Shown: in pieces, positions 22,176-37,460 of the stretch
Layout of the letters: the number at the start of each line of letters is the position of its first letter
How positions within the stretch are numbered: the first letter of the stretch is position 1
Assembly (NCBI RefSeq): GCF_013426915.1
Contig: NZ_AP023179.1
Location: 2,356,001 to 2,420,000 of the forward strand
Direction of reading: 5' to 3'
DNA: 64,000 bases
DNA from: Paraburkholderia sp. PGU19
GTDB taxonomy: Bacteria > Pseudomonadota > Gammaproteobacteria > Burkholderiales > Burkholderiaceae
The notes under the pieces: generated by a model
What the model was told of the DNA's origin: nothing
Seen by the model: only the letters and a program-made list of their open reading frames with translations
Database searches by the model: none
Translations under genes and position numbers: made by a program

Positions 22176-23111
22176 TCAGCGCGTGAGCGAGACCTTCGTG
22201 AGCGGCTCGGCGTCTTTGATGATCGAGTGGCTCATGCCGATGGTCTGCAACCCGCCATCGGCCACATACGGCACGATGCCGAGCGCGCTGATCTTCTGCA
22301 CGATCTCACGGCGGCAGGCTTCGTCTTCCGGCGGACAATAATCGATTGAAATGACGGGCAGGCTGTAACGTTCGTGTATCTCGCGCGCCTGGGCGAGCAG
22401 CCATTCGCGGTCGTTGCCGGGTACTTCGCTGTAGCGCTGATTCGCCTGATCCCAGCGGCCAAACAGCGATTCGAACGCGACGGCCGCAACCTGATCGTGC
22501 ACCTGCGGCAGAATCTCGAAACCCCGGTTCAGTATCAGCCGCGCCTGCGGATAGCGGGCCTTCAATTCGCGCAACACTGCGCCAATGCCCGCCTGCTGCT
22601 GCATCCGTTCGGCGTCCGTCTTCGCGACGAGTTGATACGAATCCAGCGTATCGAGAAAAAAGCCGCGATACCCGCGTTCCCACAACGGCGTGATGATCTG
22701 GTCGACGAAAAACGCGGGCCATCCCGAAGCGGTCTGGTCCACGACCGTCGATGACCAAGCCGCGTTGCTGCCCGCGAACCACGTCTTCGGCATCTGCGCG
22801 TAGTACGCGCGCTCTTTCGTCACTTCGCCGACGCTCACATACGCGTACCAGTTCGGGCAATGCGCCGTATGCGCGCGTGGGTCGAAACCGCTGTCGGGTT
22901 CGATCACCACGGTATCGAACGGTTCGAAGCGCTCGGCCTGCACGTTCGCGCCGTAGAAGAGCGCAACCGCCCCGATTCCCGTCGATGAAGCCCGCTTGCA
23001 GGCGGCCAGCGCGGGCCGCACCCACGCAACCGACAGCAACAGGATGACCACCGCCGCGCAAGCGACGACGATCCACGAAACGCCCAGACGGGCGAACGAA
23101 CTGGCTGTCAT
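22176..23111 (-). CDS. Stand-alone PelA-type glycoside hydrolase domain (GH166-like), membrane-anchored
   Basis: A 311-residue protein made of an N-terminal membrane segment (WIVVACAAVVILLLSVAWV) and one TIM-barrel domain like the N-terminal hydrolase domain of PelA. It has WYAYVSVGEVTKE, ERGYRGFFLDTLDSYQLVAK (Asp154, Asp157) and AVAFESLFGRWD with Glu214, the position corresponding to the catalytic Glu reported for Pseudomonas PelA. It starts 7 bp after pelG and is the last gene of the pel operon. The PelA protein encoded here lacks the AFESLF glutamate, so this gene may supply the Pel-cleaving activity (1,4-linked galactosaminoglycan) on the periplasmic side. The complementation idea is inference. 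The standard seven-gene pel operon has no such gene. Confidence 0.85.
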   Translation of the reverse strand: MTASSFARLGVSWIVVACAAVVILLLSVAWVRPALAACKRASSTGIGAVALFYGANVQAERFEPFDTVVIEPDSGFDPRAHTAHCPNWYAYVSVGEVTKERAYYAQMPKTWFAGSNAAWSSTVVDQTASGWPAFFVDQIITPLWERGYRGFFLDTLDSYQLVAKTDAERMQQQAGIGAVLRELKARYPQARLILNRGFEILPQVHDQVAAVAFESLFGRWDQANQRYSEVPGNDREWLLAQAREIHERYSLPVISIDYCPPEDEACRREIVQKISALGIVPYVADGGLQTIGMSHSIIKDAEPLTKVSLTR

Positions 23112-23118
23112 AAAACGT

Positions 23119-24492
23119 TCAATTGCGCAGCATGTAAGTTTCGTATTCGAGCTTGCTGAACTTGCGATCCAGGAGTTGCACTGCGGCAGCGACGAGAATC
23201 AGCAGCGTCAGCGCGAAGCCATAACCATAATAGTCTGGCTGCATGTACAGCGTAATACCCGTCAGGATGCCGTTCAACAGCACGAACGCAAGACACAGAC
23301 GCAACACCGTGCGCCTCGCATCGAGATAGAAGAACACGTTCAGCAGACCGAGCAGCAACACCTGCAGGCTCGCCGCGATCACGTCGACCATCATCAGCGG
23401 CATATACAGCGACGAAATGCCGAGCGCATCGAGCACCAGATGGCCGAACGCGAGAATCAGCAGCAGCACCACCGCCTGAATCTTCACGATCTCATACAGG
23501 CCCGCGCGCACGCTGCCGACCATCATGTCGCGCATGTCGTTGATATGGCGCAGCGTCGCGCCGCTGCGCACGGCGTCGTAGAAGCGGTCGTAGTATTCGA
23601 CGAAATCGGCTTCGATGCGCACGAGGAACGTCGCCATGCCCGGCATCACGCACACGTAGGCGATGAAAACGGGAATGTCGTAAATGACGGACGCATGCAG
23701 CGGCCCGATGACTTTCGACCCTGTGCCCGGCGCATACCAGAACATGAACTTGTCGAGCCACACGCCGAGGTTGAACAGGAACCCGACCATCGCGAGACTC
23801 GGATACGCAAAGCGCTTCTGGAACACCTCGAACGAGATGAAGCGCGGGCTGCGATAGTTGCGATAGATCAGCCCCGACAAACCAGCAAGCAGCACGACAT
23901 GCCCAGCGACGAAGCCGCCGAGCAAACCCGACAACCCGTGCGAATTGAGCATCAGCGCGAACGCGACGGTACAGCCGTAACCGATCGCGAACACAAAGAG
24001 AATCTGCCGGTACTGCTTTACGCTCGACAGAAAGATCACCGCGATCCAGATGTTGCTGACGACGACGAAGCCCGCCACCATCAGCAGCCGGTACATCAGC
24101 GGCTCGCCCTGAAAGCCGAACGCGACGGCAAGCACGCCGAGCACGCCCGACGCCGCCGTCGAAACCAGAACGACGCCGTTGTAGTTCGACAGCACGAGAT
24201 CATCGCGCTTCTCGAAGATCCGGTCGGAAATGAAGCGTGTGAACGACAGTTGCAGCGGCCCCGTGAGGATCAGACTGCACGCAATCAGATACGTCACCGA
24301 TACCTGGAACTGCACGATCGCGTACTTCGGTATCACGAACGCGAGGCTCATCACGCCGATGATCAGAATGCCGAAGATCGACAGGATCAGCGGACCGGAA
24401 CTGATCAGCCCCGCATACGCGTAAGCGCGTGCGACGCCGAACAGCGTCTGCCGCTTCAGAATCTTGCGAAGCTCGAAACCAATGCCAGCCAT
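23119..24492 (-). CDS. pelG: PelG, Pel polysaccharide inner-membrane transporter
   Basis: A 457-residue polytopic protein (about 12 helices), the same length as known PelG, related to the MOP/Wzx-type flippases. The N-terminus MAGIGFELRKILKRQTLFGV and the segment KFMFWYAPGTGSKVIGPLHA are characteristic. PelG forms the inner-membrane synthase complex with PelD, PelE and PelF and moves the growing Pel chain across the membrane. The ATG overlaps the pelF stop codon (ATGA), which supports this start over a longer in-frame one. It is followed at 7 bp by the extra hydrolase gene. Confidence 0.95.
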   Translation of the reverse strand: MAGIGFELRKILKRQTLFGVARAYAYAGLISSGPLILSIFGILIIGVMSLAFVIPKYAIVQFQVSVTYLIACSLILTGPLQLSFTRFISDRIFEKRDDLVLSNYNGVVLVSTAASGVLGVLAVAFGFQGEPLMYRLLMVAGFVVVSNIWIAVIFLSSVKQYRQILFVFAIGYGCTVAFALMLNSHGLSGLLGGFVAGHVVLLAGLSGLIYRNYRSPRFISFEVFQKRFAYPSLAMVGFLFNLGVWLDKFMFWYAPGTGSKVIGPLHASVIYDIPVFIAYVCVMPGMATFLVRIEADFVEYYDRFYDAVRSGATLRHINDMRDMMVGSVRAGLYEIVKIQAVVLLLILAFGHLVLDALGISSLYMPLMMVDVIAASLQVLLLGLLNVFFYLDARRTVLRLCLAFVLLNGILTGITLYMQPDYYGYGFALTLLILVAAAVQLLDRKFSKLEYETYMLRN

Positions 24493-26120
24493 CAGCGCAC
24501 CCCTTCCGTCTGTGTCGACTGTGCCGCTGCCGCCCTGCCCGCATGCATCGGGCAACCGCCGCCCTGCCCGCCTTCAGCGGCTTTGACTTGCGAAGGCGCC
24601 GCCATCAAACGCTGATACAGCACACGATATTGATCGATCATCTGCGCCTTCGTATAGAAACGCCGCACGCGCGCCAGTCCCGCCTGTTGCGCGGCAAGCC
24701 AGCGAGGCTCGTCGCCGAGCAGATCGAGCACGGCCTGCGCGAACGCTGCAGGATTCGCGATCGGCACCACGCTCCCCGCTGCACCCAATGCGCGGTCCTC
24801 GTCGCCGTAGCCTTCGATCAACTGCCGGCACGAACCCACGTCCGTCGTGATCGACGGGATGCCCGCTGCGAAGCCTTCCAGCACGACGAGCGGCAAGGCC
24901 TCACTGATCGACGTCAGCGCGAGCACATCGACCTTCGGCAGAATCTCGTCGATGCGCTGAAAGCCGAGAAACTTCACGTTATTCGCAAGACCCAGGCTTT
25001 CCGCGAGCGCGCGGCATTCCTGCGCGTACGACGGATCTTCTTCTTCAGGCCCGACGATCCATCCTTCGATATCGGGCATCGCGCGCGATGCGATGAACAG
25101 CGCGCGAATGTAAGTCTTGATGTCCTTGATCGGCACCACGCGGCCGATCAGCGCGACCACGTTGCGCGGCCGTACGACGCGCTTGTCGACGAGCGGCGCG
25201 AGACCGTCCACGTCCACGCCGTTCGGAATGTTGCGCGTACGCGCGGCCTGCGCGCCGTCCGTGATCTGCCGCTGACGGTTCGCTTCGTACAGCGCGACGA
25301 TATCGTCGGCGGCGTCATAGGCGAGCTTGCCGAGCGCCTCGAAGAAACGCACCCACAGTTCGCGGAAGTAACTGATCTTCGAAATGTCGCGTTCGAACGC
25401 GCCGCGGTTGTCGCGAATCCACTGGCTTTGCAGCAGGTCGATCTTGCGCTCTTTCGTATAGATGCCGTGCTCGGACACGAGCAGCGGCCGCCCCGTCCGA
25501 TAGTGCAGCAAGGCGCCCAGAAAGCCCGCATATCCCGTCGACACCGTGTGATAGACCTTCGCGGGCGGCAACTGCTCGGCGACGCGCGCAAGCTGCCACA
25601 GCGGCTTGTGCATGATGCGCACGGTCCAGAAGTAATCGGTGAACGATGGGTCCGTGCAATAGCGGTGATACTGATCGACGATGAAGTCCCACGCCGCGCG
25701 GCTCGTCAGGAACTGTTCCTCGCTGAGCGGCGCCTTGTCGCCGATCAGCTGCACCATATCGGCCATCATCGCGCCGGCATCGACTTCGCCGCCGTTACGC
25801 CAGGCTTCGTGCAGCGCCGCCGATTGCGCGAACGCCTGCGCATCACCGGGAATTTCGCGCGCCGCCTGATCGTCCGCACCGGACGTCTCGTACAGATAGT
25901 GCGCCTCGAAGTGCACGACGTTGTCGGGCAGCGCATAGGCGGCCGCCTTGTAATCCTCTTCGCGGCTGCCGATGAACGCAATCGCGAAGCGGATCTCCGG
26001 ATACGAGCGGAGCATTTCGTTGACCCAGCTCGACACGCCGCCGCGCACGTACGGGAACGTGCCTTCGAGCAGCAGGCAGACATCGGCGTCCGCAGCGCGG
26101 CGCAACAGTGACGGTTTCAT
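24492..26120 (-). CDS. pelF: PelF, Pel polysaccharide glycosyltransferase (GT4)
   Basis: A 542-residue cytosolic GT-B enzyme that polymerises Pel from UDP-amino sugars. Family marks: DVCLLLEGTFPYVRGGVSSW at the N-terminus, SEHGIYTKERKIDLLQS, NIPNGVDVDGLAP, VVALIGRVVPIKDIKTYIRA at the start of the C-terminal domain, and TSISEALPLVVLEGFAAGIP with the EX7E-type acidic pair. The C-terminal tail after about residue 515 is an unusual Gly/Ala-rich stretch. The start overlaps the pelE stop (ATGA). Because of a frame shift inside pelE, the open frame continues upstream of this ATG into the pelE N-terminus. Confidence 0.95.
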   Translation of the reverse strand: MKPSLLRRAADADVCLLLEGTFPYVRGGVSSWVNEMLRSYPEIRFAIAFIGSREEDYKAAAYALPDNVVHFEAHYLYETSGADDQAAREIPGDAQAFAQSAALHEAWRNGGEVDAGAMMADMVQLIGDKAPLSEEQFLTSRAAWDFIVDQYHRYCTDPSFTDYFWTVRIMHKPLWQLARVAEQLPPAKVYHTVSTGYAGFLGALLHYRTGRPLLVSEHGIYTKERKIDLLQSQWIRDNRGAFERDISKISYFRELWVRFFEALGKLAYDAADDIVALYEANRQRQITDGAQAARTRNIPNGVDVDGLAPLVDKRVVRPRNVVALIGRVVPIKDIKTYIRALFIASRAMPDIEGWIVGPEEEDPSYAQECRALAESLGLANNVKFLGFQRIDEILPKVDVLALTSISEALPLVVLEGFAAGIPSITTDVGSCRQLIEGYGDEDRALGAAGSVVPIANPAAFAQAVLDLLGDEPRWLAAQQAGLARVRRFYTKAQMIDQYRVLYQRLMAAPSQVKAAEGGQGGGCPMHAGRAAAAQSTQTEGVR

Positions 26121-27176
26121 GTGGACCAGTAACGCGCAACAGGTTTGAGCATCGGCAGCGTCGCGGCATTGCCGAGCGACGCGAGCAGTTCGGACACGCG
26201 CGCATAATCGCCGCGCAGATATTCGACTTCGGCAAGCCACGGCACCAGACGCTCGCGCGGAAAACCGAGCGATTGCGCGCGGTCCATGTGCTGCGCGGCT
26301 TCGTCCGCGGCGCCGTTGGTCAATGCGAGGCGGCCGCGAATCATCCACAGCGCGGCATCGCTGGCGTCGATTTCGAGCGCGGCGCGCGCATGGCGGTCGG
26401 CCTGTTCGAGCGTGTGCCGATAGACGACGCCCTGCACGAGGTTTTGATAGATCAGCTCGAAATACAGCTCGGCGAGATGCCGGTTGATCGCATGACGATC
26501 GCCTTCCGACTGCGCATCTTCCAGCGTCTTCGACGCATGGAAAATGCGCTGCATCACGTCGTTTTCCGCCTGATCCAGCGTGCCGTACGCGATCAGCCGC
26601 ACGTCTTCGACCGGGTCCGCGAGCAGATCGCGCAGCAGCGTGCCCGTGGTGCGGGTCGGCATGCTCTGGATCGCGACGAGCGCCGACAGGCGATCGGCGA
26701 TCGGCGGCCGCGACCTTCGTGTTCACAAGCCGCGCCTGCAAGCGCGCACCGCCGCCGTGCGAGACACGCGACATCAGATACGTGACGAACTCGGGCGCGG
26801 GCACGTCGCCCATCTCATCGTCCGCATGCGAGGCCGGATAGCACGCCGCCCAGATGCAGCTCACCAGCACGACGAGACCGCCGAGCAGCGGCACGAACGT
26901 GCACGCAAGGCCGAGCAACAGCAAGCTCCACGCACGCGGCTCGCGATAACGCAGCGGCAGCAGCAGGCGGAACAGCAACGCCTGGAGCACGCCGCACACG
27001 ATGTTGAACGCAACGGCGGGCAACAGCGGATCGTACGCGGTGGGCGTATTCGCGAAGTACACGATGCCCACGCACTGAACGCCGGCAACGATGACGATGC
27101 CAAACGCCGCGAGCACGGCGACCAGCGCGGCCACGAACCCGCCGCCGCTGGAGCGGTTTGCGGTGGCCTTATCCAT
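26117..27176 (-). pseudogene. pelE: pelE, interrupted by a 7-bp tandem duplication (frameshift)
   Basis: PelE is the inner-membrane TPR protein that joins PelD to PelF/PelG. Here the N-terminal part (MDKATANRSSGGGFVAALVA, two hydrophobic segments, then GGGARLQARLVNTKVAAADR) lies in one frame. The C-terminal TPR part (MPTRTTGTLLRDLLADPVED to MLKPVARYWST) lies in another. At the junction GATCGCC occurs twice in tandem; deleting one copy restores AADRLSALVAIQSMPTR without a break. As written, the N-terminal frame has no stop and runs on into PelF. The start overlaps the pelD end and the stop overlaps pelF, as in an intact operon. It may be a true mutation, a phase-variable site or a sequencing error. 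Confidence 0.85.
26689..26705. repeat. 7-bp tandem duplication inside pelE
   Basis: GGCGATC, GGCGATC, GGC on the plus strand (GATCGCC twice on the coding strand). The second unit shifts the pelE frame; with a single unit both halves of PelE are in one frame. Confidence 0.9.
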
Positions 27177-28587
27177 CGATACCACTGCGCAGAAGAAGGC
27201 GCTTCAACGCCAGGCCCGGCTCGTCGCCGCCCAGATGCAGCGTGTGCACGCCGATGCGCGCGCCTTCGAGGTCCAGATTGAACTGCGCGCGCAGGCTCGA
27301 TTCGATCCGAGCGAGGTAGCCGTCGACGCCCGTCGCGTCGGTTGCGGGCATCAGATTCAGCAGCACCGACTGCCCTGCCGATTTCACCGGCCACATCAGA
27401 TCGAGCGACCGGCGGCGGCGCATCACGTGCTCGAAGAACGAATCGCCGGCATCGTCATGCGGGAACACCAGCGCCACCAGCGACGACGTGATGCCCGCCG
27501 TGCGTTCGAGCCGCGTGAGCCGGCTCACGTCGAGCGCGAACTCGTACGGGCAATCGGGCACCGCGTGCAGGATCTCGCGCACCTGCTGCGAGTGCTCGAC
27601 GCCGTCGGCGTAATAGCCGAGCAGCACGAGCAGCAGTTGCAGATTGTCGAAGTTCAGCGACAGGAACGGCATGCGGCGGATCGCGAGCATCGCGAGCATG
27701 GTGCCGTCCGCGGAGATCAGCGGCGCGCACACCAGCAGATGCGTATTCGTCACCGGTCGCTCTTCGCTCTTCAGATGCGCGACGGCACGCGTTTCGAGCG
27801 CGCGCTGCACGAGTTCGTCGCGCGGATCGAAGTCGAACGTATCGCCGATATGCGCGAGCGCGTCGCGCCCGACCTTGCCGTCATGCACGGGATACAGCGC
27901 AGCCACTTCGATCTGGCACGCCTGCGCGATGAATTCGAGCAACTCGCGCGTGCCGGGCATGTCGCCGGAACTGCGCGGCTTCGTGTCGAGACCATGCGCG
28001 ACGGAAATGCGGCGCAGCTCGGTGATCGAATCGCGCAGCGTGGTCGGCTTGGTCAACAGGTCCTTTTCGAGGCGCTCGTGCGACAGGCGCATCAGATAAT
28101 GACTGTTCGTGATCGCGACGAGCCGGTCGTTCAGATAGTCGTTGATCGCGTTCGCGCGCTGCGCGCGGCTGCCCCACGTATCGCCGAAGTGACCCGCGAC
28201 GATAGTCTGCAGTACGCCGCCCGTGAAGAACAGCGTCGGCCACGCGGCCGAACTGCCGTGCATCAGCACCTGCGTGAACACCTGGTATGCGCCGATCAGC
28301 ATCGCGCAGCCGAGCAGGCCGAGCAGCGTGCCATAACGCAGCGCGACGATGAGCGGCGCGAACCACAGCCACGGAAAGCCCGTGTGCAGCAGGAACGGAT
28401 TGTTGTGATCGAGCGCATAGGAAGCCGCGAAGACCACGCCGATGAACACGACCGTCTCCACGATGGAAAACGGACGCGACACCGCGGGCGCGACGAGGCG
28501 CCGCCACGCGCTCAGGTTGCCGAACGGGTTCGATTGGCGCGGTTTCGCCGCGGCACTGGCGGCGCTTTGCGCGGTGACGGTATTCAC
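27169..28587 (-). CDS. pelD: PelD, cyclic-di-GMP-binding inner-membrane protein
   Basis: A 472-residue protein. Four hydrophobic segments fall within about residues 40-135, then a linker helix, a GAF-like domain (about 170-335, with ELLEFIAQACQIEVAALYPV) and a degenerate GGDEF-like domain at the end. RRRRSLDLMW contains R393-x-x-D396, the RxxD inhibitory-site motif, and R427 lies 34 residues later, the spacing of the Arg pair that binds c-di-GMP in Pseudomonas PelD. No active GGDEF sequence is present. PelD switches Pel synthesis on post-translationally when c-di-GMP is high. It overlaps pelE by 8 bp. Confidence 0.94.
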   Translation of the reverse strand: MNTVTAQSAASAAAKPRQSNPFGNLSAWRRLVAPAVSRPFSIVETVVFIGVVFAASYALDHNNPFLLHTGFPWLWFAPLIVALRYGTLLGLLGCAMLIGAYQVFTQVLMHGSSAAWPTLFFTGGVLQTIVAGHFGDTWGSRAQRANAINDYLNDRLVAITNSHYLMRLSHERLEKDLLTKPTTLRDSITELRRISVAHGLDTKPRSSGDMPGTRELLEFIAQACQIEVAALYPVHDGKVGRDALAHIGDTFDFDPRDELVQRALETRAVAHLKSEERPVTNTHLLVCAPLISADGTMLAMLAIRRMPFLSLNFDNLQLLLVLLGYYADGVEHSQQVREILHAVPDCPYEFALDVSRLTRLERTAGITSSLVALVFPHDDAGDSFFEHVMRRRRSLDLMWPVKSAGQSVLLNLMPATDATGVDGYLARIESSLRAQFNLDLEGARIGVHTLHLGGDEPGLALKRLLLRSGIDG

Positions 28588-28675
28588 GGCCGACTCCTCA
28601 TCACGTGTCGAGTTGCACTGGTATTGCAGATTGCCGCGCGCATGTCGCGAAGCACATGACAGACGCGCGACGCCA

Positions 28676-29227
28676 TCAGCCGCGCGTGCGCAGCGGCGAC
28701 AGCAGGCTGCCGATCAGCGACGACGCGACGCTCGACAGGCTCGAGCGCGTCCAGCCGCTCTTCGAACCCGTCGCGCTCCACACCACCTGGCCCGACGCCA
28801 CGTCGATCAGCTCGAACGTCACGCCCGCGACGGGCTCGCCATCCACGCCGACCTTGTAGCGCCACTCTTCGACAGCGCCCGTCAGCACGTACTTCACGCG
28901 CTGCTCACGCGCCCATGCGAGCTTCTTCTCGCCGATATCGCGCTGCGCGGTGTCGAACATCGCGTTCGCGGATGCATCGACGGGTGCGAGGCGCACATCG
29001 GCAAAGCCGTTCTGACGCAATGCGTTCGCCGCAATCGCCGCGGCGCTGCTGCCCGCTGCCGGCGTTTCCGTGAAGTTCGCCATCGTCACCACGGCGACTG
29101 AGTCCTTCGATTCGATGGCAGGCGAGCCCGCCTGGCGAATCGAACCGCATGCGCCCAGCACCAGCGCCGAAGCGGCCGCTGCCGCCACCCACTTGATCAA
29201 ACGTGTCCAGCCGTTGATGTTGCTCAT
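28676..29227 (-). CDS. pelC: PelC, outer-membrane lipoprotein of Pel export
   Basis: A 183-residue lipoprotein with signal segment WVAAAAASALVLGAC, Cys at the lipobox, then a compact alpha/beta domain (SKDSVAVVTMANFTETPAAG, LTGAVEEWRYKVGVDGEPVA, FELIDVASGQVVWSATGSKS). In known systems PelC forms a 12-subunit ring at the inner face of the outer membrane, just below the PelB pore, guiding the cationic polymer. GAGGAG seven bases before ATG selects this start. The gap of 88 bp to pelD is the longest within the operon and contains nothing recognisable. Confidence 0.92.
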   Translation of the reverse strand: MSNINGWTRLIKWVAAAAASALVLGACGSIRQAGSPAIESKDSVAVVTMANFTETPAAGSSAAAIAANALRQNGFADVRLAPVDASANAMFDTAQRDIGEKKLAWAREQRVKYVLTGAVEEWRYKVGVDGEPVAGVTFELIDVASGQVVWSATGSKSGWTRSSLSSVASSLIGSLLSPLRTRG

Positions 29228-29266
29228 CGAACCACTCCTCAGAAATGTCGTTATCGTCCCAATTCG

Positions 29267-29311
29267 CCGAATCAGTAGAACCCGAATCAGTAAAGCCCGA
29301 ATCAATAGAAC
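29267..29311. repeat. Three tandem 15-bp units at the pelB-pelC junction
   Basis: CCGAATCAGTAGAAC, CCGAATCAGTAAAGC, CCGAATCAATAGAAC in direct succession. The third unit overlaps the last codons and stop of pelB; the other two lie in the 74-bp spacer to pelC. Probably slippage-derived. Confidence 0.8.
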
Positions 29312-32300
29312 CATTTGTACCGCGCGCCCAGCAATGTGACGGGCGTGCCGATCTTCGACACGCGCTGATGCTGCAGGAACACCGCCAGGTGATCGCCGCC
29401 AAACACCGTGCCCGCAACGCCGATACTCACGTCCGGGCCCCAGCCCTGAATCGAGTCGTGCACGATGCCCACGTCGAAGAAAGGACGCCATGCATGCGTG
29501 TACTGCTCGAGCAGATCGTTGCCGAAGCCGAAGTAAAAGCCGTATTGCGTGTACGTGTCCGGCATGAAGTCCTGCGGCGACGCAGGCTGCAAGGCCGTCG
29601 GCAACAGGCGCGTCATCAGCGCGTCGGCCTGGCCGCTTGCGCCGTAGGCGCCGTGCGTGATCAGCGCGCGCAACGTGTAGTCCGGGTAGGTCGTGCGGAT
29701 ACGGTAGGTCACTTCGGCCGTCGACAGCACGCCGCTGCCGATGTAGTTGCGCGCCTGGCTATAGAAGCGGTCCGCTTCGACGCTGCCCGTGAGCGTGATC
29801 CGCTCCGTCATGCGATACGTGAGATCGCCGATCACGTTGTCCTTCATGCCGCCGACCAGCAGCGTCTGGTTTTCATCCGCGACCTGGTTGCGGCCCGCGC
29901 GCACGCCGAGCGTCAGCGGCGAGTTGCGCCCCACTTCGCCCGCGAGATCGAGCGTGTAGAACGCAGCCGAGCCGACGCGCCGACCGCCCGTGACCGTGAA
30001 CGACGTGTCGCGCGTTTGCCGCTCGCCGTAGATGTTGAGCCAGCGGTCGACGGACGGCACGTTGACCAGCTGCGTGATGTCGGTCGAATGCTGGAAGTGC
30101 TGCACGGCCGTCACGCCAACCAGATAGCGCTCGGCAATCTTGCGGCTGGCCGCGAGCGTCGTCTCGACGTAATCGAGCGGATGCTCGATGTGATTGACGA
30201 CATCGGCGTCGATCGATTGCGGCCAGTCGAGCGTCGTTTCCGTCACGCGCGTATGCAGGTCGGTGTCTTCCGGCGCGCCGTCGAGCGCGTTGAACGCGAG
30301 CTGCTGCGCGCGGTCGGGCCGGTCGACGGCAATCGTCGCGTCGATGCGGTCGTTGACGGGCAGGCGCGAGCGCTCCACCGCGAGCAGACGTTCCATCTCG
30401 GGGATATCGTTCTCGGCGAGCGCGATGGTCAGCTGTGCATCGGCGGGACGCGACAGACGCTCCGCGTATTGCTGCGCGAGCCACCGCTTCGCCAGCGGAT
30501 TGCTTTCCTTCGACAGCGCCCACGCCACGGCCACTTCTTTCGCGACGGCGCCGCGCACCCGCGCGTTCTCCGGCAGCCCGGCGCCATCCAGCGGCGCGCC
30601 ACCCGGCAGCCCCTTCGCCGTGCCGATCATCGTGCGGCGCACGATCGAATTGTCAGCCGATGCGGGCCGCGTCGACATCAGGCTGTCGAGCAGCGCAGCG
30701 GACGCATCGCCCGTTGCGAATTCGGCTGAGAGCGTCACTCGCCGGCCACGCAGGTCTTCGAGCGTCTCGGCGTCCTGCGCGGTGCGCCCACGCATTGCCG
30801 CGCGTTGCGCGCCATGCAGCTTCACGAGCTGCGCTTCGTCCTGCTGCATCTGCAGCCACACCTTCTTGCGGATCGACCACGCGAGGCCGTCGTGCCCCGC
30901 CTGCTCCTGCGCGTCGGCATAGGTGAGCAGCCACAGCGGATCGCGCGACATCATCGCCGACTGGCGGCGCAGATATTCGAGCGCGGCGACGGGCCGGTTC
31001 AGGCGCATTTCGGCGGCTGCGTACGGCTCCCACAAGGCCGAGCTTTGATCGGCACTACCGCGCCAGCGCTTCAACGCTTCGCGCAGATCGCCGTCGCTGC
31101 CGTAGTCGACCAAGGTCCACAGGTACGCGGCGCGCAGATCGGAACTGGCGCCCGGCAAATCGACGGCGCGCTTCAGATCGGCGAGCGCCCTCTGCGGCTC
31201 GTTGATGAGGCGATAGTATTCGGCGCGCACGCCGAGCAGCGCGGGCGAGGCTTCCGCCGCCTTGAGTTCGTCGGGCGTGAGACTCGCGAGCAGCGTCGCG
31301 ATGCGGTCCATCGCCTGCGCGTCGGTGTAGTAGAAAATCGCGTCCTGCAACGCGCGCACCGTGTGATCGCGGCGATAACGCAATTCGGCGACGCGGCCCG
31401 CATCGATCGGATACGGGTCGTAGAAGTACGTCATGTCGCCGAGGTCTTCGGGCGTCGCCGCGCCGCTCGCGATCAGATGGAAATACGCTTCGTTCGCGTC
31501 GTCGTCCCGTTGCAGCAGACGCGCGAGTTCCGCGTAGTTGCGCCAGAAGTCCTCGTCGCTGTCTTTCGCGCCCGCGCGCGCCGTCTTCAGCGCGGCCAGC
31601 GACGCACGATAGTCGCCCTGCCGGTACAGCACGCTCGCCGTGCGCAGCGCCGCATTCGCGTCGTTCGGATGACGTGCCTGCACCGCGCGGTACGTTGCGA
31701 GCGCCTGATCGTCGTGACCCGTGCGCTCCGCGAGCTGGCCGATGCGCTGATCGATCGCATCGGCGTTCGTCGCGCGCGGCAGCGAGCGCAGGAACGCGAG
31801 GCCATCGTCGGGACGGCCGAGACGTTCGTACGTTGCCGTCACGTTGTCGATCAGCTTCAGGTCGTTCGGTTTCGCACGCGCTTCGTGTACGAGTGCTGTC
31901 AGATAGGCTTCGTCGTCGTCGAGCATCGGCGCGATGCGCAGCACGTTCTGCCAGCCGACCTGATCGTTCGACAGTTGCGCATAGTCGAGCCACGACTTCA
32001 GCGCGAGCGACGGATCGCGATTCCATTCGGCGACCTGCGCGAGGCGCTTGACCCATTCCACCGAACGCGGATCGCGCTGCACCTGCTGCGCGGCGACTTT
32101 CTGCGCGCTCGCCAGATCGCCCGATTCGACGAAGGCCTGAAACACGACATTGGCCACGCTCGGGTCCGAGCGGACGGCGGAAGTGTCAACGCTGTTCACA
32201 CTGCTGGCGGCTTGCGGCGCTTGCGCTACCGGTGCTACCGGCGCTGCTTGCGTGGCGACGCGGATCACGCGCACTTCGCCCTGCTCTTGCGCCGCTGCCT

Positions 32301-33282
32301 CGCGCATCGCGGCGCGCAGGCTGACGAGCGAGCCGCCATGCCGATACGCGACGGGACCATCCATATACGCATAACCCGCTTGCGCCACGTTGCGCACATG
32401 CTCGGCTAGCGGCGACGTCGGCTCGGCGAGCGCGTACTTCGCCAGCAGCTTCGCGTACCGGTCGACAGCATCCGGACGATTCGCCGCGCGCGCGAGATTG
32501 AGCAACACGATGAGCGTGGCGGGATCGTCGGCGAGCTTGCCGAGATGCGCGTCGGCGGCCGTCAGCGCGTCGTCGAGCAGATTGCCCGACTGCAGTGTGC
32601 GCACGCCCGCGACGAAGCAACGGCGCTGTTCGTCGCGCGTCTGCGCCACGGCTTCCTGACGGAACCATGCATCGGCGGCAGCGTGATAGTCGCCGACCTG
32701 CAGCGCGTAGCGCGTGATCTGCGTGTCCCACTTCGTGCGTCCGTCGGGATCGTTGGCCGACAGACGCGCGTACAGATGCGCCGCGAGATCGGGCATGCCG
32801 ACGGCGGCCGAACGCTGCGCGAGCCACTCCAGATCCTTCGGCGCCCACGGCAGCTTCGCAGCCTGCGTCAGGCGCGCGCGGAGCTCGTCGAGCGCGGGCG
32901 CGCGGCGCGGATCGTCTTCGGGAATCGCGAAGGTGCGCTGCTCCGTCACCGACAGATGCAGCATCATCGCGCTACGCATCATGTCGTCGGTGCCGAGCGC
33001 TTCCATGCGCGTGGCGATGCGCTCGGCGTCGTCGGTGCGCCCCAGATACAGATACTGCGCACCCAGCAGCGAGAGGAATTCCTCGTTGTCGGGCCGCACC
33101 TTCGACCACGCTTCCAGGTACGCGACGCTCAACTCGCTCGGCGCACCGACGGACGCGACGCGCTGGCGCAAGCCACCGCGCGGCGACACGCCGTACATGG
33201 TCGCGAGCACGACGCCCGCGAGCGAGTAGACGAGCCACGTCGGAACGATACGGGGACGTTTGTCGTTCGTTTTATCGTTCAC
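29302..33282 (-). CDS. pelB: PelB, TPR/beta-barrel outer-membrane Pel exporter
   Basis: A 1326-residue protein, somewhat longer than the roughly 1190 residues of Pseudomonas PelB. Order: short cytosolic N-terminus, one membrane helix (VPTWLVYSLAGVVLATMYGV), a long helical TPR array (for example ALATYRAVQARHPNDANAAL), then a C-terminal beta-barrel of about 350 residues ending LLGARYKWFY with the aromatic last residue typical of outer-membrane barrels. The barrel exports Pel; the TPR region binds the PelA deacetylase. The start is a GTG that overlaps the pelA stop by 11 bp (VNDKTNDKRPR); the frame upstream of it has no family character. Confidence 0.94.
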   Translation of the reverse strand: MNDKTNDKRPRIVPTWLVYSLAGVVLATMYGVSPRGGLRQRVASVGAPSELSVAYLEAWSKVRPDNEEFLSLLGAQYLYLGRTDDAERIATRMEALGTDDMMRSAMMLHLSVTEQRTFAIPEDDPRRAPALDELRARLTQAAKLPWAPKDLEWLAQRSAAVGMPDLAAHLYARLSANDPDGRTKWDTQITRYALQVGDYHAAADAWFRQEAVAQTRDEQRRCFVAGVRTLQSGNLLDDALTAADAHLGKLADDPATLIVLLNLARAANRPDAVDRYAKLLAKYALAEPTSPLAEHVRNVAQAGYAYMDGPVAYRHGGSLVSLRAAMREAAAQEQGEVRVIRVATQAAPVAPVAQAPQAASSVNSVDTSAVRSDPSVANVVFQAFVESGDLASAQKVAAQQVQRDPRSVEWVKRLAQVAEWNRDPSLALKSWLDYAQLSNDQVGWQNVLRIAPMLDDDEAYLTALVHEARAKPNDLKLIDNVTATYERLGRPDDGLAFLRSLPRATNADAIDQRIGQLAERTGHDDQALATYRAVQARHPNDANAALRTASVLYRQGDYRASLAALKTARAGAKDSDEDFWRNYAELARLLQRDDDANEAYFHLIASGAATPEDLGDMTYFYDPYPIDAGRVAELRYRRDHTVRALQDAIFYYTDAQAMDRIATLLASLTPDELKAAEASPALLGVRAEYYRLINEPQRALADLKRAVDLPGASSDLRAAYLWTLVDYGSDGDLREALKRWRGSADQSSALWEPYAAAEMRLNRPVAALEYLRRQSAMMSRDPLWLLTYADAQEQAGHDGLAWSIRKKVWLQMQQDEAQLVKLHGAQRAAMRGRTAQDAETLEDLRGRRVTLSAEFATGDASAALLDSLMSTRPASADNSIVRRTMIGTAKGLPGGAPLDGAGLPENARVRGAVAKEVAVAWALSKESNPLAKRWLAQQYAERLSRPADAQLTIALAENDIPEMERLLAVERSRLPVNDRIDATIAVDRPDRAQQLAFNALDGAPEDTDLHTRVTETTLDWPQSIDADVVNHIEHPLDYVETTLAASRKIAERYLVGVTAVQHFQHSTDITQLVNVPSVDRWLNIYGERQTRDTSFTVTGGRRVGSAAFYTLDLAGEVGRNSPLTLGVRAGRNQVADENQTLLVGGMKDNVIGDLTYRMTERITLTGSVEADRFYSQARNYIGSGVLSTAEVTYRIRTTYPDYTLRALITHGAYGASGQADALMTRLLPTALQPASPQDFMPDTYTQYGFYFGFGNDLLEQYTHAWRPFFDVGIVHDSIQGWGPDVSIGVAGTVFGGDHLAVFLQHQRVSKIGTPVTLLGARYKWFY

Positions 33283-36139
33283 AGCGGATCTCGACGGGCT
33301 GATAGTGGGCTTCGAGGGCATTGAGCGCGGGCGTGTCGAAGCGTACGTAGGCGCCGTCGCGTTGCAGCGGCACCGCGCGGCCCGCGATGCTCGCGGTGCA
33401 GCTTTGTGCATTCGCGAGCTTCACGAACGGCTGGTAGTAGCTGCCGAACTCGAACGACAGGTTCTTGCCGTCGCGCTTGAAATCGCGCACGAAGCCATTG
33501 GCTTCGGCGATGTACGGCAGCGCATCCGCTTTCGACAGCGCACCTGCAGCGTCAAAAGACACGCGCGCCGCGCCATCGGTGATATGGATGTACGTGCCGT
33601 CCGGGCCCGCCGCGTAGCCCGTCACGCCGCGCGACGCATGCAGATCGGGCGATGTTGTCAGCGGCCAGTGCAGTTCGCGCACTTCGCCGTTGCCGCGCAC
33701 GATCCAGTCGCTCGACTTCGCGTTCGACGCCTCGCTCTGCACCGTGCGCGCGACGGCGAACGAACGCCAGTCGAGCACCTTGTGCGCGTAGTCCGTCATA
33801 TGCACGGGCAGCACCGGCTGCTTGAGCACGGCCGCGAAAATCTGGTCGAGCGCGCGCAGCGACGCGACCTTCGTGCCGCTATACATGTGGTAGTAGATGT
33901 CGATCGGCTTGAAGCGCAGCGGCTTGTCCGTCATGTCGAAGGTTTCGAGCACGCGCGTGAAGCCATAGAACGGGCCGAGCCAGTCGTTCGTGTAGACGTT
34001 CTCGTCCTGGTTCGGCGCATACACCTGATACGCGCCCGGCCCTTTCAGCACGCCGATGGGCGCGATATTGGTCCAGCTGTTCGCGCTCTTCGTGATCACG
34101 GTGTCGCCGCCGTTCACGTTGTCGACGCCCGCCTGATAAACCTTCCGCACGACGATCGCGGGCGGCTCGCAGTTGCCCGGCCACTGCAGGATCGTCGTCT
34201 TCTTGCCCGGGGGCGCGAGACGCGTATTGATGTAGTCGATCGAGCCCGTAACTTCACGGTCGATATTGAACGTGTAGTTCGGGATGTTCAGCGAGAACGC
34301 CGTGTCACCGCCGCCGCGGTCGATACGCTCGCCCGTCTTCGCATCGACGTTCTCCCACTCGAACGGATGCGAATACGTGTGCGTGCCGATCGCGACATAA
34401 GGCAGCGCGAACATCTTGCGCGCGATCTCTTCGAGTCGCGGCGAGATCTGCGGATACAGGCCCTTCGGCCCCACTTCGCCTTCGATCACCGACAGCGTCA
34501 TCGGCACCTTGTAGCGCGTGAAAATCTGCTGGAACAGCGCTTCGCCCGAATAGTCGGCGCCCGGGAATTCCGCGCGCGACGCGAAGCCGTCGCCATCCAC
34601 GTGCGACATAAACAGACGCCGGCCGTTTTCCGTCGTGACGCTCGGCGACGGCATCGGTTGCAGACGCAACGCCTGACGCAGGAACTCGATCGGCTGAATG
34701 GCCCAGCGCTCCTGGCCGATGCCGTTGAGCGAGACCACTGTGTAGGGGCTCATCGCGAAGCCGCCCCACGGCGTGATCGCAATCTGGTCGAGCGTCGCTT
34801 CGCCGCTCTTCACCCGCAGCAGCGACTTGCTCGCGCTGCCGACTTGCACGCCCGTCAGATCGCGCGTGCCGAGCTTTGGATCGACTTCGAAACCCACCAT
34901 CGGATCGCGCGTGACAACTTCGATCTTGTCAGCGAACGGCCCTGCCACGGCTTGAAGATCGAGCGCGCGCCCTTCATCTTCTGCTGCATCGAAGCCGAAC
35001 TGGCCGAGAAACACCATCGGCACGCGCGCGGCGAGACGCGCATCGACCCACGCGCGCCACGCGCCGCTGTTCGGCGTCTCGTCGCCCTGTAGCCACGCGA
35101 CGACGCCCGCATAGCGGTCCGGCGTGATGCCCTCGGGCAACGGCTCGTGGACGTTCGCGTATTCGACGTCGTAGCCGAGATAGTTGAGCGGCGTCGCGAG
35201 ATCGCGCACGCCAGGTGTTTCGTCGAGCGGCAAGTCTTCGTCGCTGTCCTGCACGATCAGCACCTTCCGCGGCAGCACTTCAATCGCGCCGATGCCGACC
35301 GCGTTCATCGATGCGTTCGTCACATACGGCGTGACGCCCGCGGCGAGCACCTGCGCGGCCGTTGCGCGCGCGCAGGCGCGGTCGTCGGCGGGACAGGTTT
35401 CGATCGATACGACGGGCACGCCCGTCGATTGCGTGAACTGTTGCGCGGCGGCGCTGCGCGCGTCGCGCTCGCCTGCCGCGACATTGCCGCTCGCCGCGTC
35501 GCGCACGAGCGACGGGCCGACCACCGCATATAGCGCTTTCGCGTGCGGCAACGCGGCCTGCAACGCCGCGTCGCCGCCGATCACGAGACGCGCGTCGGGA
35601 TGCGCAGCGCGGATCGCATCGACGGCTGCAATGGCCGCCGGCGTGTCGAGCAGGAAGCCGCGATAGCCGCGCTGCCAGAGCGGTTCGATCTGTGCAGCGA
35701 CGAATGCGTCGGGCGTGGCTTGCGCGGCATCGGCATGCGTGCGCGCAAGCCACACGGTATGACGCAACGGATGCGCGACAGGGTCGAAGCCGCTGGCGGG
35801 ATCGATCACGACGGCATCGAACGCCTGCAACTCGCCAACGGGCACGCGCGAGCCATAGAAGAATGCGAGATTGACGTGCGGCGCCTGTGCGCCGCCCGAT
35901 GCTTGCGCGTGCAACTGAGCAGACGCGGGAGCCTGGGCCTGAGTCTGCGCATGCGCGGCGACGCCCTGCAGCGCAAGCGCGGCTGTCGCCGTGAGCGCAA
36001 CCATGCGAGCGTGCGCGAGCGCACGAACGAGAGCGCGCGATTGCGCCATCATCGCTCTGTACATTCGCGGCTTATCGCCTTGCATTACCCCGTCGAGCGC
36101 CGGTCGCGCTTCGAATATCGATTGAATCCCCACTGGCAT
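33272..36139 (-). CDS. pelA: PelA, Pel deacetylase with a degenerate hydrolase domain
   Basis: A 955-residue periplasmic protein. The signal segment is MVALTATAALALQGVAAHAQ; starts at 36139, 36085 or 36064 are all possible. Then come a hydrolase-type barrel (about 88-285), a reductase-like domain (290-400) and a CE4-like deacetylase. The deacetylase keeps its metal residues: SHVDGDGF (Asp515, Asp517) and GTHTYSHPF (His587, His591). The hydrolase barrel is eroded: GYRGFLLDTPAAIAAV keeps only the first Asp, and the AFESLF motif is replaced by LYAVVGPSLV, losing the catalytic Glu. It is the first gene of the operon. Deacetylation makes Pel cationic for export; hydrolysis is probably absent from this protein. 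Confidence 0.92.
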   Translation of the reverse strand: MPVGIQSIFEARPALDGVMQGDKPRMYRAMMAQSRALVRALAHARMVALTATAALALQGVAAHAQTQAQAPASAQLHAQASGGAQAPHVNLAFFYGSRVPVGELQAFDAVVIDPASGFDPVAHPLRHTVWLARTHADAAQATPDAFVAAQIEPLWQRGYRGFLLDTPAAIAAVDAIRAAHPDARLVIGGDAALQAALPHAKALYAVVGPSLVRDAASGNVAAGERDARSAAAQQFTQSTGVPVVSIETCPADDRACARATAAQVLAAGVTPYVTNASMNAVGIGAIEVLPRKVLIVQDSDEDLPLDETPGVRDLATPLNYLGYDVEYANVHEPLPEGITPDRYAGVVAWLQGDETPNSGAWRAWVDARLAARVPMVFLGQFGFDAAEDEGRALDLQAVAGPFADKIEVVTRDPMVGFEVDPKLGTRDLTGVQVGSASKSLLRVKSGEATLDQIAITPWGGFAMSPYTVVSLNGIGQERWAIQPIEFLRQALRLQPMPSPSVTTENGRRLFMSHVDGDGFASRAEFPGADYSGEALFQQIFTRYKVPMTLSVIEGEVGPKGLYPQISPRLEEIARKMFALPYVAIGTHTYSHPFEWENVDAKTGERIDRGGGDTAFSLNIPNYTFNIDREVTGSIDYINTRLAPPGKKTTILQWPGNCEPPAIVVRKVYQAGVDNVNGGDTVITKSANSWTNIAPIGVLKGPGAYQVYAPNQDENVYTNDWLGPFYGFTRVLETFDMTDKPLRFKPIDIYYHMYSGTKVASLRALDQIFAAVLKQPVLPVHMTDYAHKVLDWRSFAVARTVQSEASNAKSSDWIVRGNGEVRELHWPLTTSPDLHASRGVTGYAAGPDGTYIHITDGAARVSFDAAGALSKADALPYIAEANGFVRDFKRDGKNLSFEFGSYYQPFVKLANAQSCTASIAGRAVPLQRDGAYVRFDTPALNALEAHYQPVEIRCER

Positions 36140-36644
36140 ACGATTTTTTCTTCGGTTTATTACTTTTTTACCGACCGGCTTTAAAGCGCCGGTTTTCCCC
36201 GGGATTTATGTCCCTACGGCAGCATTGGATGACCAAATGTCAAATACCCGGCCATCCGCCACATGCGGATGAAAATCTGCAGACTGGAAAGATCAGAGGA
36301 TATGAAGCGCTATCTCTGTGAATCGGCGCGAATTCTAACGCGTCCAACGTCAAAAAAGACGGGTGTCGCAAAAATATCACGCGGCTGAAAACGCTTTAAC
36401 GACGGGCAAAAAGCGATACTGGATTAATCTGAGAAAGGCTCGCAAACGTTAAACAGATAATCGCGAACGCATATTCACTTTTCATTATTTTTCAATTTGG
36501 CGCCAACACAATACCCGATATTTGATGCAGGGCGTGTCCATTTTAAAGTCCAATATTTCGCTATTGAGAGGCGCGCAAACGATTTCGCGGTTGCAACGCG
36601 TTGCAACTCGCGTCGACGCGCACGTTCATGCGATCATCGGGCGT
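36140..36644. other. Divergent control region between pelA and an AraC-type gene
   Basis: About 500 bp that is clearly A/T-richer than the surrounding genes, as expected for promoters. On the minus strand TTGACA occurs at 36239-36244 but no convincing -10 element follows. A dyad ACCGGC, 8 nt, GCCGGT lies at 36175-36194, just ahead of pelA, and could act in the leader. I saw no sigma-54 type GG-N10-GC element on the pelA side. The long upstream frame of the AraC gene (from 36522) lacks family similarity and was left out. Confidence 0.4.
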
Positions 36645-37460
36645 ATGAACGATCAACGTTTTTGGTGCGATCCGCAGCTGCCGTTCGTCGAAAGCCGGCT
36701 CGCTTCTCATTCCCGCGCGTGCTATGTGCCGCATACGCACGACACGCTATCGATCGGCGCCGTCGACAGCGGACACAGCAACTACACGTGCGGTGACGAC
36801 CGCGCGCGCCTCGGTCCGGGCAGTCTCGTGCTGATCCCGGCGATGCGGGTCCACTCGTGCAATCCCGATAAGGAGAGCGAGTGGAGCTATCAGATGCTTC
36901 ATCTCGACGTCGCATGGGCGAGCGCAGTGCTGCACGAGAACGGCAGCGCGGACGCCGATACCGTGCTCGCGTGTCCGTCGATCAACCAGAACCGCGAAGC
37001 GTACCTGCGTTACTGCGCGCTCAACCGGCTGTTGTTCTCGAACGCGGATAGCGCCGAGAAGGAAGCCGCACTGATCCTGTTCGTCAGCGAACGCTCGTGG
37101 CTCGGCGAGGCGCGCGACGTGCCGCCCGTGCCGCGCATCGCAGCCGAACGCCTCGCGCGCATCACCCGTCTTCTGCATGACGCGTACGGCGAGCGCCTGC
37201 CCATCGCGCAACTCGCGCAGATGGCGGGCATGAGCCGCTATGCGTTCATTCGCGCGTTCCGTGCTGCGACGGGCATGTCGCCCCACGCGTATCAGCTCGA
37301 TCTGCGCATCAACGCGGCGCGACGTCTGTTGCGTCACGGACGCGCGCTCACGGCCATCGCGCATGAACTCGGTTTCGCGGATCAGGCGCATTTCCAGCGC
37401 GCCTTCAAGGAGCGCGTCGCGATGACGCCCGGCGCTTACCGCCGCGCGGCCGTATCGTAA
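36645..37460 (+). CDS. AraC family transcriptional regulator
   Basis: A 271-residue regulator with an N-terminal cupin-like sensor (CYVPHTHDTLSIGAVDSGHS, RLGPGSLVLIPAMRVHSCNP) and a C-terminal pair of helix-turn-helices (LPIAQLAQMAGMSRYAFIRA and LTAIAHELGFADQAHFQRAF). The MNDQRFWC start is preferred because the sensor domain begins there. A LysE-family exporter gene follows at 88 bp on the same strand, a pairing common in proteobacteria, so it probably controls that exporter. It is also divergent from pelA, so a role in Pel control cannot be excluded. Confidence 0.88.
   Translation: MNDQRFWCDPQLPFVESRLASHSRACYVPHTHDTLSIGAVDSGHSNYTCGDDRARLGPGSLVLIPAMRVHSCNPDKESEWSYQMLHLDVAWASAVLHENGSADADTVLACPSINQNREAYLRYCALNRLLFSNADSAEKEAALILFVSERSWLGEARDVPPVPRIAAERLARITRLLHDAYGERLPIAQLAQMAGMSRYAFIRAFRAATGMSPHAYQLDLRINAARRLLRHGRALTAIAHELGFADQAHFQRAFKERVAMTPGAYRRAAVS

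What the first reader, a model, noticed from the sequence alone, without database searches (positions are those of the whole stretch)
22176..36139. Pel operon with a hydrolase-eroded PelA and a separate intact PelA-type hydrolase gene at its end
In the sequence, PelA keeps its deacetylase residues (SHVDGDGF, GTHTYSHPF), but its N-terminal hydrolase barrel has lost the AFESLF glutamate (LYAVVGPSLV instead), the WYAYVSVGEV block and the second Asp of the LDTLDS motif. Seven bp after pelG an eighth gene encodes the same barrel with all of these intact, behind a membrane anchor. Known biology: PelA normally carries both activities, and its GH166 domain cleaves Pel to release polymer and disperse biofilm. 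Inference: the two activities have been split, with the hydrolase tethered to the inner membrane instead of travelling with PelA-PelB. That could change the ratio of cell-attached to secreted Pel.
Basis: partly seen in the sequence, partly recalled or inferred. Interest (0 to 1): 0.85.

Follow-up and report, generated by a model that had tools for sequence, protein, structure and literature searches.

The report
Biofilm-sugar enzyme split in two
In a large group of soil and plant bacteria, the enzyme that trims the Pel biofilm sugar appears to have handed its cutting job to a second, separate protein, while its own worn-down cutting domain is still kept; this offers a natural test of why cells cut a sugar they are exporting.

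The parts
33272..36139 (-). pelA, 955 aa: eroded N-terminal barrel plus intact deacetylase
   Evidence: best solved relative 9CGY
35270..35881 (-). eroded (pseudo-hydrolase) barrel of PelA, residues 87-290; D165 = D160 position kept (35645-35647), P209 at the E218 position (35513-35515)
33740..34642 (-). deacetylase part of PelA, about residues 500-800, with HVDGDG and HTYSH
   Evidence: HVDGDG and HTxSH invariant in alignment A3, 54 rows; matches CE4-type deacetylases
29302..33411 (-). pelB (open frame; true start probably inside)
   Evidence: Pfam TPR and PF24604 PelB barrel
28676..29299 (-). pelC (start approximate)
   Evidence: PDB 5T10/5T11/9H80
27169..28587 (-). pelD
   Evidence: PF16963 PelD_GGDEF
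26117..27185 (-). pelE, read in two frames in this assembly (switch within 26679-26698)
   Evidence: one frame in the closest relative L012
24492..26120 (-). pelF
   Evidence: NF038011 PelF; start by eye
23119..24498 (-). pelG
   Evidence: PF16933 PelG; start by eye
22176..23111 (-). eighth gene, stand-alone PelA-type hydrolase (HYD), 311 aa
23004..23093 (-). N-terminal hydrophobic helix of HYD, residues 7-36: anchor or signal peptide
   Evidence: KD17 2.91 for P0001, whose first 50 residues are the window's; helix in the model with low confidence
22470..22472 (-). codon of E214, equivalent of PaPelA E218
   Evidence: aligned with the Ala of the E218A entry 5TSY

Best explanation
This is a full-set Pel operon with two-protein processing. 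PelA is now a deacetylase that carries a folded but hydrolytically dead (or nearly dead) barrel; endo-cutting of Pel has moved to a separate exported hydrolase encoded right after pelG. Shown: gene order, motif states, predicted folds, purifying selection on both barrels, co-occurrence, and a single clade of split operons. Inferred: (a) HYD hydrolyses Pel and the PelA barrel does not; (b) HYD arose as an extra copy of a PelA barrel, which freed PelA's own barrel to lose its catalytic groove while keeping a structural or polymer-guiding role; (c) because HYD is not part of PelA it is not carried to PelB, so cutting can be set independently of deacetylation, most likely acting on polymer in the periplasm near the synthase or not taken up by PelA-PelB.
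For: HYD keeps the E218 and D160 equivalents in 120 of 120 listed relatives, and E101 in 119, N199 and R200 in 120; in the family survey 40 of 40 keep both. Of 41 split PelAs (window included) none has Tyr at 96 or NRGFE (table), and all have 23-38 residues between positions 95 and 160, where 40 of 40 HYD and 26 of 26 intact PelAs have exactly 65. Co-occurrence: 35/37 and 31/32 eroded against 0/25 and 0/25 intact. One clade of 35 split rows, SH-aLRT 99; 41 of 41 in one clade. dN/dS of the eroded barrel is 0.11-0.32 in 15 pairs; barrel/deacetylase ratio median 2.2, against 1.0 in 7 intact pairs, one-sided p 0.001. Folds. In P. aeruginosa E218A PelA leaves cell-associated Pel but little secreted Pel (PMC9894940 section 7); the isolated hydrolase domain does not bind PelB and the modelled polymer path bypasses it (PMC12022489 passages), so detaching it is mechanically plausible. 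Deleting the stand-alone pelAH of B. cereus raises biofilm (PMC7112168 passages).
Against: No activity or expression data. D160 is kept in 35 of 41 split PelAs (Glu in the other 6), and the E218 place is Glu in 3 and Asp in 14 of 41; P. xenovorans LB400 has both residues, and two f223 operons (L173, L174) have Glu at 218 but have lost D160. Residual activity in some species is therefore not excluded. Two split operons lack a cis HYD (L033, L040), so it is not strictly needed in cis. HYDs do not form one clade in the barrel tree, so a single origin of HYD is not shown. The split clade is one evolutionary event, so the co-occurrence is not many independent replicates. In S. intermedius, deleting the operon's hydrolase had no phenotype (PMC12345266 passages).
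Confidence: 0.75

Rival explanations
1. The PelA barrel is still a hydrolase with a different active site or preference (for example for fully acetylated or GalN-rich stretches), and HYD is an accessory enzyme.
For: D160 position kept in 35 of 41 (Glu in 6); Glu or Asp at the E218 position in 17 of 41; an acid at the end of strand 7 (I-D/E-x-C) is retained in nearly all; barrel under purifying selection.
Against: The E218 position drifts among Asp, Pro, Gly, Glu and Gln, even between close relatives (L021/L022 Asp, L023 Glu); the loop over the groove and 48 positions conserved in HYD are lost; in the window the sixth strand ends before Pro209 with no acid in VVGPSLV.
Confidence: 0.1
2. Plain decay: PelA's barrel is a remnant, kept only because it is attached to the deacetylase and needed for folding. 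(Overlaps with the best explanation; the odds are not exclusive.)
For: Relaxed selection relative to the deacetylase (ratio 2.2); erosion also in lone PelA genes; Gram-positive PelADA has no barrel at all (PMC7112168 passages).
Against: dN/dS stays at 0.11-0.32; the barrel is retained in all 41 split PelAs and in the Eoetvoesiella, Alcaligenaceae and Chromobacterium relatives; columns such as D108, G158, C249 and A261 are invariant over 54 rows.
Confidence: 0.35
3. HYD is not for the periplasmic Pel pathway but is a secreted dispersal or feeding enzyme for galactosaminoglycans, including fungal ones, that happens to sit in the operon.
For: AxA-type motifs in 99 of 116 scorable N-termini; hydrolase barrels without a matched PelA deacetylase occur in group g12; the host group includes fungus-associated strains (PMC4122924 passage); PelAH acts across kingdoms (PMC12054363 passage).
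Against: Position directly after pelG (the HYD open frame starts a median of 1 base from the pelG stop over 75 loci of two overlapping surveys; 13 of them have about 1.1-1.3 kb between) and strict association with eroded PelA.
Confidence: 0.2

Closest known systems
PelA of Pseudomonas (GH166 + CE21; PDB 5TCB, 9CGY)
   Different: In Pseudomonas one protein carries both active sites; here the barrel in PelA is worn and a second protein has it. PMC12022489 section 8 reports hydrolase and deacetylase active sites conserved in the full-length homologs it aligned.
Gram-positive pelDEADAFG with separate pelAH (B. cereus, PMC7112168, passages)
   Same: Deacetylase and hydrolase on separate genes
   Different: There PelADA has only the deacetylase, pelAH in bacilli is a flanking, divergently transcribed gene, and the operon has no pelB or pelC. 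Here PelA keeps a worn barrel, HYD is the last co-directional gene and the Gram-negative export set is present.
pelABCDEFGA of Burkholderia terrae BS001 (PMC4122924, passages)
   Same: Same gene order, including the extra gene called pelA; second pel cluster in the same genome
   Different: The passage I read treats it as duplication and reshuffling; it does not mention barrel erosion, split activities or other species.
GH114 / GH191 endo-galactosaminidases
   Same: Same barrel fold; catalytic pair equivalent (PMC12054363 passages); Pfam files HYD under PF03537

Membership tests
GH166 (PelA hydrolase family), small protein HYD | Catalytic Asp160/Glu218 pair | tested here: met
   D154 and E214; 120 of 120 listed relatives
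GH166 (PelA hydrolase family), small protein HYD | Barrel fold with the loop inserted after strand 3 | tested here: met
GH166 (PelA hydrolase family), small protein HYD | Endo-alpha-1,4-N-acetylgalactosaminidase activity | not testable with these tools
   needs purified protein
GH166, barrel of window PelA | Catalytic Asp160/Glu218 pair | tested here: not met
   Asp kept, Glu replaced by Pro209
GH166, barrel of window PelA | Fold | tested here: met
CE21 (PelA deacetylase) | HVDGDG and HTxSH motifs | tested here: met
   present in the window and invariant over 54 rows of A3
CE21 (PelA deacetylase) | De-N-acetylase activity | not testable with these tools
   needs purified protein
pelABCDEFG operon | All seven genes in order | tested here: met
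   pelE in two frames in this assembly
Gram-positive PelADA/PelAH type split | Deacetylase protein without hydrolase barrel | tested here: not met
   barrel present and folded in the model
GH114 | Pfam PF03537 match | tested here: met
   E 6.6e-19; PaPelA is GH166 by the papers, and structure puts HYD nearer GH166 than GH114

The most novel reading that the evidence does not exclude
The worn barrel of split PelA is a true pseudoenzyme with a gained job: a non-cutting Pel-binding or chain-guiding domain, which became possible once a second barrel took over hydrolysis in a common ancestor of these betaproteobacteria. Some of these organisms, the window's included, then run two Pel machines in one cell, one coupled (intact PelA) and one uncoupled (split), giving polymers of different length or acetylation.
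Probability: 0.3. Interest if true: 0.78.

Novelty: new variant of a known kind. Interest (0 to 1): 0.62.

Why it matters
Why exopolysaccharide machines carry an enzyme that cuts their own product is a standing question. Here evolution has done the separation: deacetylation and cutting are on different proteins, so the cutting gene can be removed without touching PelA, PelB or deacetylation. It also qualifies the published view that full-length PelA homologs have both active sites conserved (PMC12022489 section 8) and warns that homology to PelA does not imply hydrolase activity. The PelC chain of PDB 5T10 is 98% identical to PelCs of the split operons L020/L106 and 96% to that of P. xenovorans LB400; I take 5T10, from memory, to be the crystallised P. 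phytofirmans PelC mentioned in PMC12141448 and PMC12022489, so structural work outside Pseudomonas may already rest on this variant.

Tried and rejected
Pseudogene or assembly artefact for the worn barrel: rejected, since the same erosion is in 41 PelAs of the family survey (window included) with low dN/dS. Fission of pelA: not favoured for the window, because PelA still has its own barrel and HYD clusters with barrels of the other Pel operon type (58-row set, 99*, which also holds the long-branched Pseudomonas row); a possible real fission, or simply a broken frame, is L176. Universal loss of the catalytic Glu: I first read the motif table that way and wrote it so in the notebook; wrong. General membrane anchoring: not supported. 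A lipobox-like LAAC in the window's kin was noticed; an Arg at -6 makes it non-canonical (rule recalled); unresolved. Many independent co-gains: not supported, one clade only. The lone PelA-like genes are not a second EPS operon as far as seen: no pel genes around 12 of them, and those neighbours of L054 and L063 that hit Pfam are unrelated (several hit nothing; the other ten loci were not scanned with Pfam). Class-wide survey: 22 of 369 genomes with a barrel match and no eroded PelA seen outside the window's own genome, but the HYD query is weak for very eroded barrels, and six genomes with barrels in short frames (G555, G561, G616, G637, G717, G762) were not examined. Atom-level superposition could not be done (no coordinates given). 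Pfam found nothing in window PelA. PMC2864759 came up in listings only and was not read.
Full report
WHAT IS IN THE WINDOW. On the minus strand, pelA (36139-33272), pelB, pelC, pelD, pelE, pelF and pelG are followed, 7 bp after the pelG stop, by a 311-aa gene (23111-22176). Families: PelB barrel, PelD GGDEF, PelF and PelG are recognised, PelC by PDB match. PelA itself hits no Pfam family; the 311-aa protein hits PF03537 (GH114) at E 6.6e-19. The next gene downstream is a LysE-like exporter (by eye) on the other strand, ending 16 bp from the 311-aa gene's stop, so the operon should end here. I call the 311-aa protein HYD.

ACTIVE SITES. phmmer against PDB sequences pairs HYD residues 45-295 with the P. 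aeruginosa PelA hydrolase (5TCB, E 1.2e-37), and the Glu that is Ala in 5TSY (E218A) is E214 of HYD. D160A plus E218A is the double mutant used to inactivate the hydrolase of PaPelA (PMC12022489 passages). In window PelA the corresponding blocks are ARTHADA for AYLSVGE, LDTPAA for LDTLDS, a stretch without NRGFE, and VVGPSLV for VAVESIH: Asp160 stays (D165), Glu218 is Pro209. In the model the sixth barrel strand is residues 203-208, directly before Pro209. Between positions 95 and 160, HYD (40 of 40) and intact PelA (26 of 26) have exactly 65 residues, the 41 split PelAs 23-38 (median 34); between 160 and 218 it is 61 in all HYD and intact copies and a median of 45 (45-64) in split PelA. The first gap falls on the region of the inserted loop over the active site of this enzyme group (loop: PMC12054363 passages). 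Over 102 PelA rows without Glu at 218 and 120 HYD rows, 48 positions conserved in at least 95% of HYD are kept in under 10% of the eroded barrels (rows are the best 120 of 521 HYD hits and 117 of the best 120 of 235 PelA hits, three could not be cut to the barrel). That comparison set aside 15 PelA rows with Glu at 218; two of these carry PF03537 in the table and are intact, so 13 eroded PelAs have Glu there.

A CORRECTION THAT CUTS BOTH WAYS. Among the 41 split PelAs of the family survey (window included), the E218 place is Asp 14, Pro 11, Gly 8, Glu 3, Gln 2, other 3; P. xenovorans LB400 has Glu there with D160 kept; two f223 operons (L173, L174) have Glu there and have lost D160. In the 41, D160 is Asp in 35 and Glu in 6. 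So what defines the class is loss of the groove (Tyr96, NRGFE, the loop), not loss of Glu218 alone. The drift of that position among close relatives (L021 and L022 Asp, L023 Glu) speaks against its being catalytic, but activity in the Glu-bearing species is not excluded.

HOW COMMON. The family survey (398 genomes) had a barrel match in 120 (HYD query) and a PelA match in 122. I fetched 80 regions of my choosing, favouring eroded ones, and later 18 intact operons in full. Scored by script, with pelA, pelG and at least 1.5 kb beyond in the locus: eroded PelA 37 operons, 35 with HYD downstream on the same strand and 2 without (L033, L040); two more (L044, L045) have HYD directly upstream of pelA; intact PelA 25 (7 + 18), none with HYD. 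The window itself is not in these counts. Left out of them: 13 eroded loci without pelG (12 lone PelA genes, and L049, cut by a contig end), 18 intact loci without pelG, L069 (cut) and 2 loci without PelA (L041, L066). The named survey (the 80 best of 585 loci of a PelF scan; scored): eroded 32, of which 31 have HYD and 1 (L148) none in view; intact 25, none with HYD; 12 loci with the barrel cut too short for the script, 10 of them with HYD; 1 intact cut downstream; 10 without PelA. L148 lies on a contig of the same length (424,173) as that of L045, whose HYD is upstream. The two surveys overlap and must not be added. Genera with the split: Paraburkholderia, Burkholderia, Caballeronia, Trinickia, Robbsia, Pandoraea, Chromobacterium haemolyticum and a Xenophilus-named record; Pararobbsia with HYD upstream, and Eoetvoesiella, an Alcaligenaceae bacterium and a Burkholderiaceae MAG after refetching. 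The readable Cupriavidus and Ralstonia loci have intact PelA and no HYD. In the order survey 43 of 399 genomes had a barrel, and five genomes of family code f223 show a stand-alone barrel plus a weak PelA barrel; I read the operon in four of them and found the split in all four (in L175 PelA falls in two frames). In the class survey 22 of 369 had a barrel.

A CUTTER IS ALWAYS LEFT. In the 53 genomes in which I classified an eroded PelA (window, 40 with split operons, 12 with a lone PelA), one search lists at least one barrel with strong similarity to HYD (E below 1e-80), in cis or elsewhere. The two split operons without cis HYD are covered by an intact second operon (G343, L209) or by a lone HYD on another replicon (G051, L041), whose barrel groups with intact PelAs rather than with the cis HYDs. 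The window's genome (11.25 Mb, 5 contigs) has a second, ordinary pel operon on contig 2 with intact PelA and no HYD (L205). The window's genus is Paraburkholderia by inference: G350, same genus, has a contig of 380,545 bases like that of P. terricola LMG 20594.

EVOLUTION. Deacetylase tree with 73 rows from order-wide sampling (my selection of rows): the 35 split rows are one side of a branch (SH-aLRT 99), nested inside intact PelAs, next to the intact operon of genus code g24; likewise 41 of 41 in the 78-row tree. Quick searches without bootstrap. The barrel tree does not place HYDs in one clade: 29, 9, and two strays (long branches warned of); they sit among barrels of the second operon type, which suggests duplication or capture of a barrel rather than fission. 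Lone PelA genes of g24 and of G159 fall outside the split clade, so erosion probably happened more than once; forks in that part have supports of 82-99. dN/dS (Nei-Gojobori, 15 pairs of split operons, two of them with dS above 1): barrel 0.11-0.32, deacetylase 0.03-0.17, HYD 0.06-0.24 except 0.51 in one pair (L015/L024); in 7 intact pairs the barrel/deacetylase ratio has median 1.0 (0.5-2.3) against 2.2 in split pairs (one-sided Mann-Whitney p 0.001; pairs not all independent). Two lone pairs gave barrel values of 0.19 and 0.11.

WHERE HYD SITS. The window's HYD begins with a helix-forming hydrophobic segment (helix 7-36 in the model, low confidence). Of the 120 listed relatives, 4 had no usable N-terminus; 24 of 116 reach KD17 2.5, mostly the best-ranked ones, and 20 of these 24 also have an AxA-like motif; 72 of 116 are below 2.0. 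No signal-peptide program was available. Anchoring is thus a lineage feature at most, and cleavage cannot be ruled out.

HOW IT LIKELY WORKS. In P. aeruginosa, PelA's hydrolase makes the secreted, low-mass Pel; PelA E218A leaves cell-associated Pel and little secreted Pel (PMC9894940, abstract and section 7 read). [quoted passage not shown] So the barrel's cutting is not needed on the export path; moving it to a free or membrane-bound exported protein should leave deacetylation and export intact while letting the amount and place of cutting change. The barrel that remains in PelA may be needed for the compact four-domain shape or for guiding polymer. These last steps are inference.

PRIOR ART. 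The BS001 genome paper (passages) lists cluster 1 as pelABCDEFGA and cluster 2 as pelGFEDCBA and takes it for duplication with reshuffling. PMC7112194 (passages) describes rearrangements and duplications of pelA; the passages do not describe this. PMC12022489 (abstract, section 8 and passages) reports conserved active sites in the full-length homologs it aligned. PMC5735546 (passages) reports only pelB and pelD from three P. terrae genomes. My searches turned up no description of worn barrels plus an extra hydrolase in Gram-negative pel operons; I judged from listings and from the passages named here, in an open-access library only, so subscription papers are not covered. Sources name many of the split PelAs 'sugar ABC transporter' and many HYDs 'endo alpha-1,4 polygalactosaminidase'.

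Noticed in passing
window 26117-27185: pelE is read in two frames in this assembly, with the switch inside 26679-26698; the closest relative (L012) and most others have it as one open frame (L030 also has two). True break or assembly indel unknown.
   Followed up: partly
G000:C2:936124 onward (L205): The same genome holds a second, ordinary pel operon with intact PelA and no extra hydrolase.
   Followed up: yes
L054-L062, L064, L065; L063: Lone PelA-like genes with worn barrels and no pel genes around them, in genomes that also have an intact PelA. Function unknown.
   Followed up: partly
genomes G155, G205, G246, G268, G323, G333, G358 (group g12): Hydrolase barrels in open frames of about 390-570 aa in genomes where no PelA deacetylase was matched: possible orphan Pel or GAG hydrolases.
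   Followed up: no
L176: Hydrolase barrel and deacetylase of PelA in two adjacent open frames: a possible true fission or a broken frame.
   Followed up: no
L177, L178: More distant pel operons with a stand-alone hydrolase after pelG (L177) or at the front (L178) and no PelA deacetylase seen; L177 lies near its contig end.
   Followed up: no
PDB 5T10 against L020, L106, L121: A PelC chain in the PDB is 96-98% identical to PelCs from split operons.
   Followed up: partly
window 36522-37460: An AraC-like regulator (by eye) is divergently transcribed from pelA across about 380 bp; possible control of the operon.
   Followed up: no
L021-L023, L027, L039 and named L105, L107-L109, L115, L117, L121, L125: About 1.1-1.3 kb of extra DNA lies between pelG and the hydrolase in 13 of 75 loci (two overlapping surveys); content not read.
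   Followed up: no
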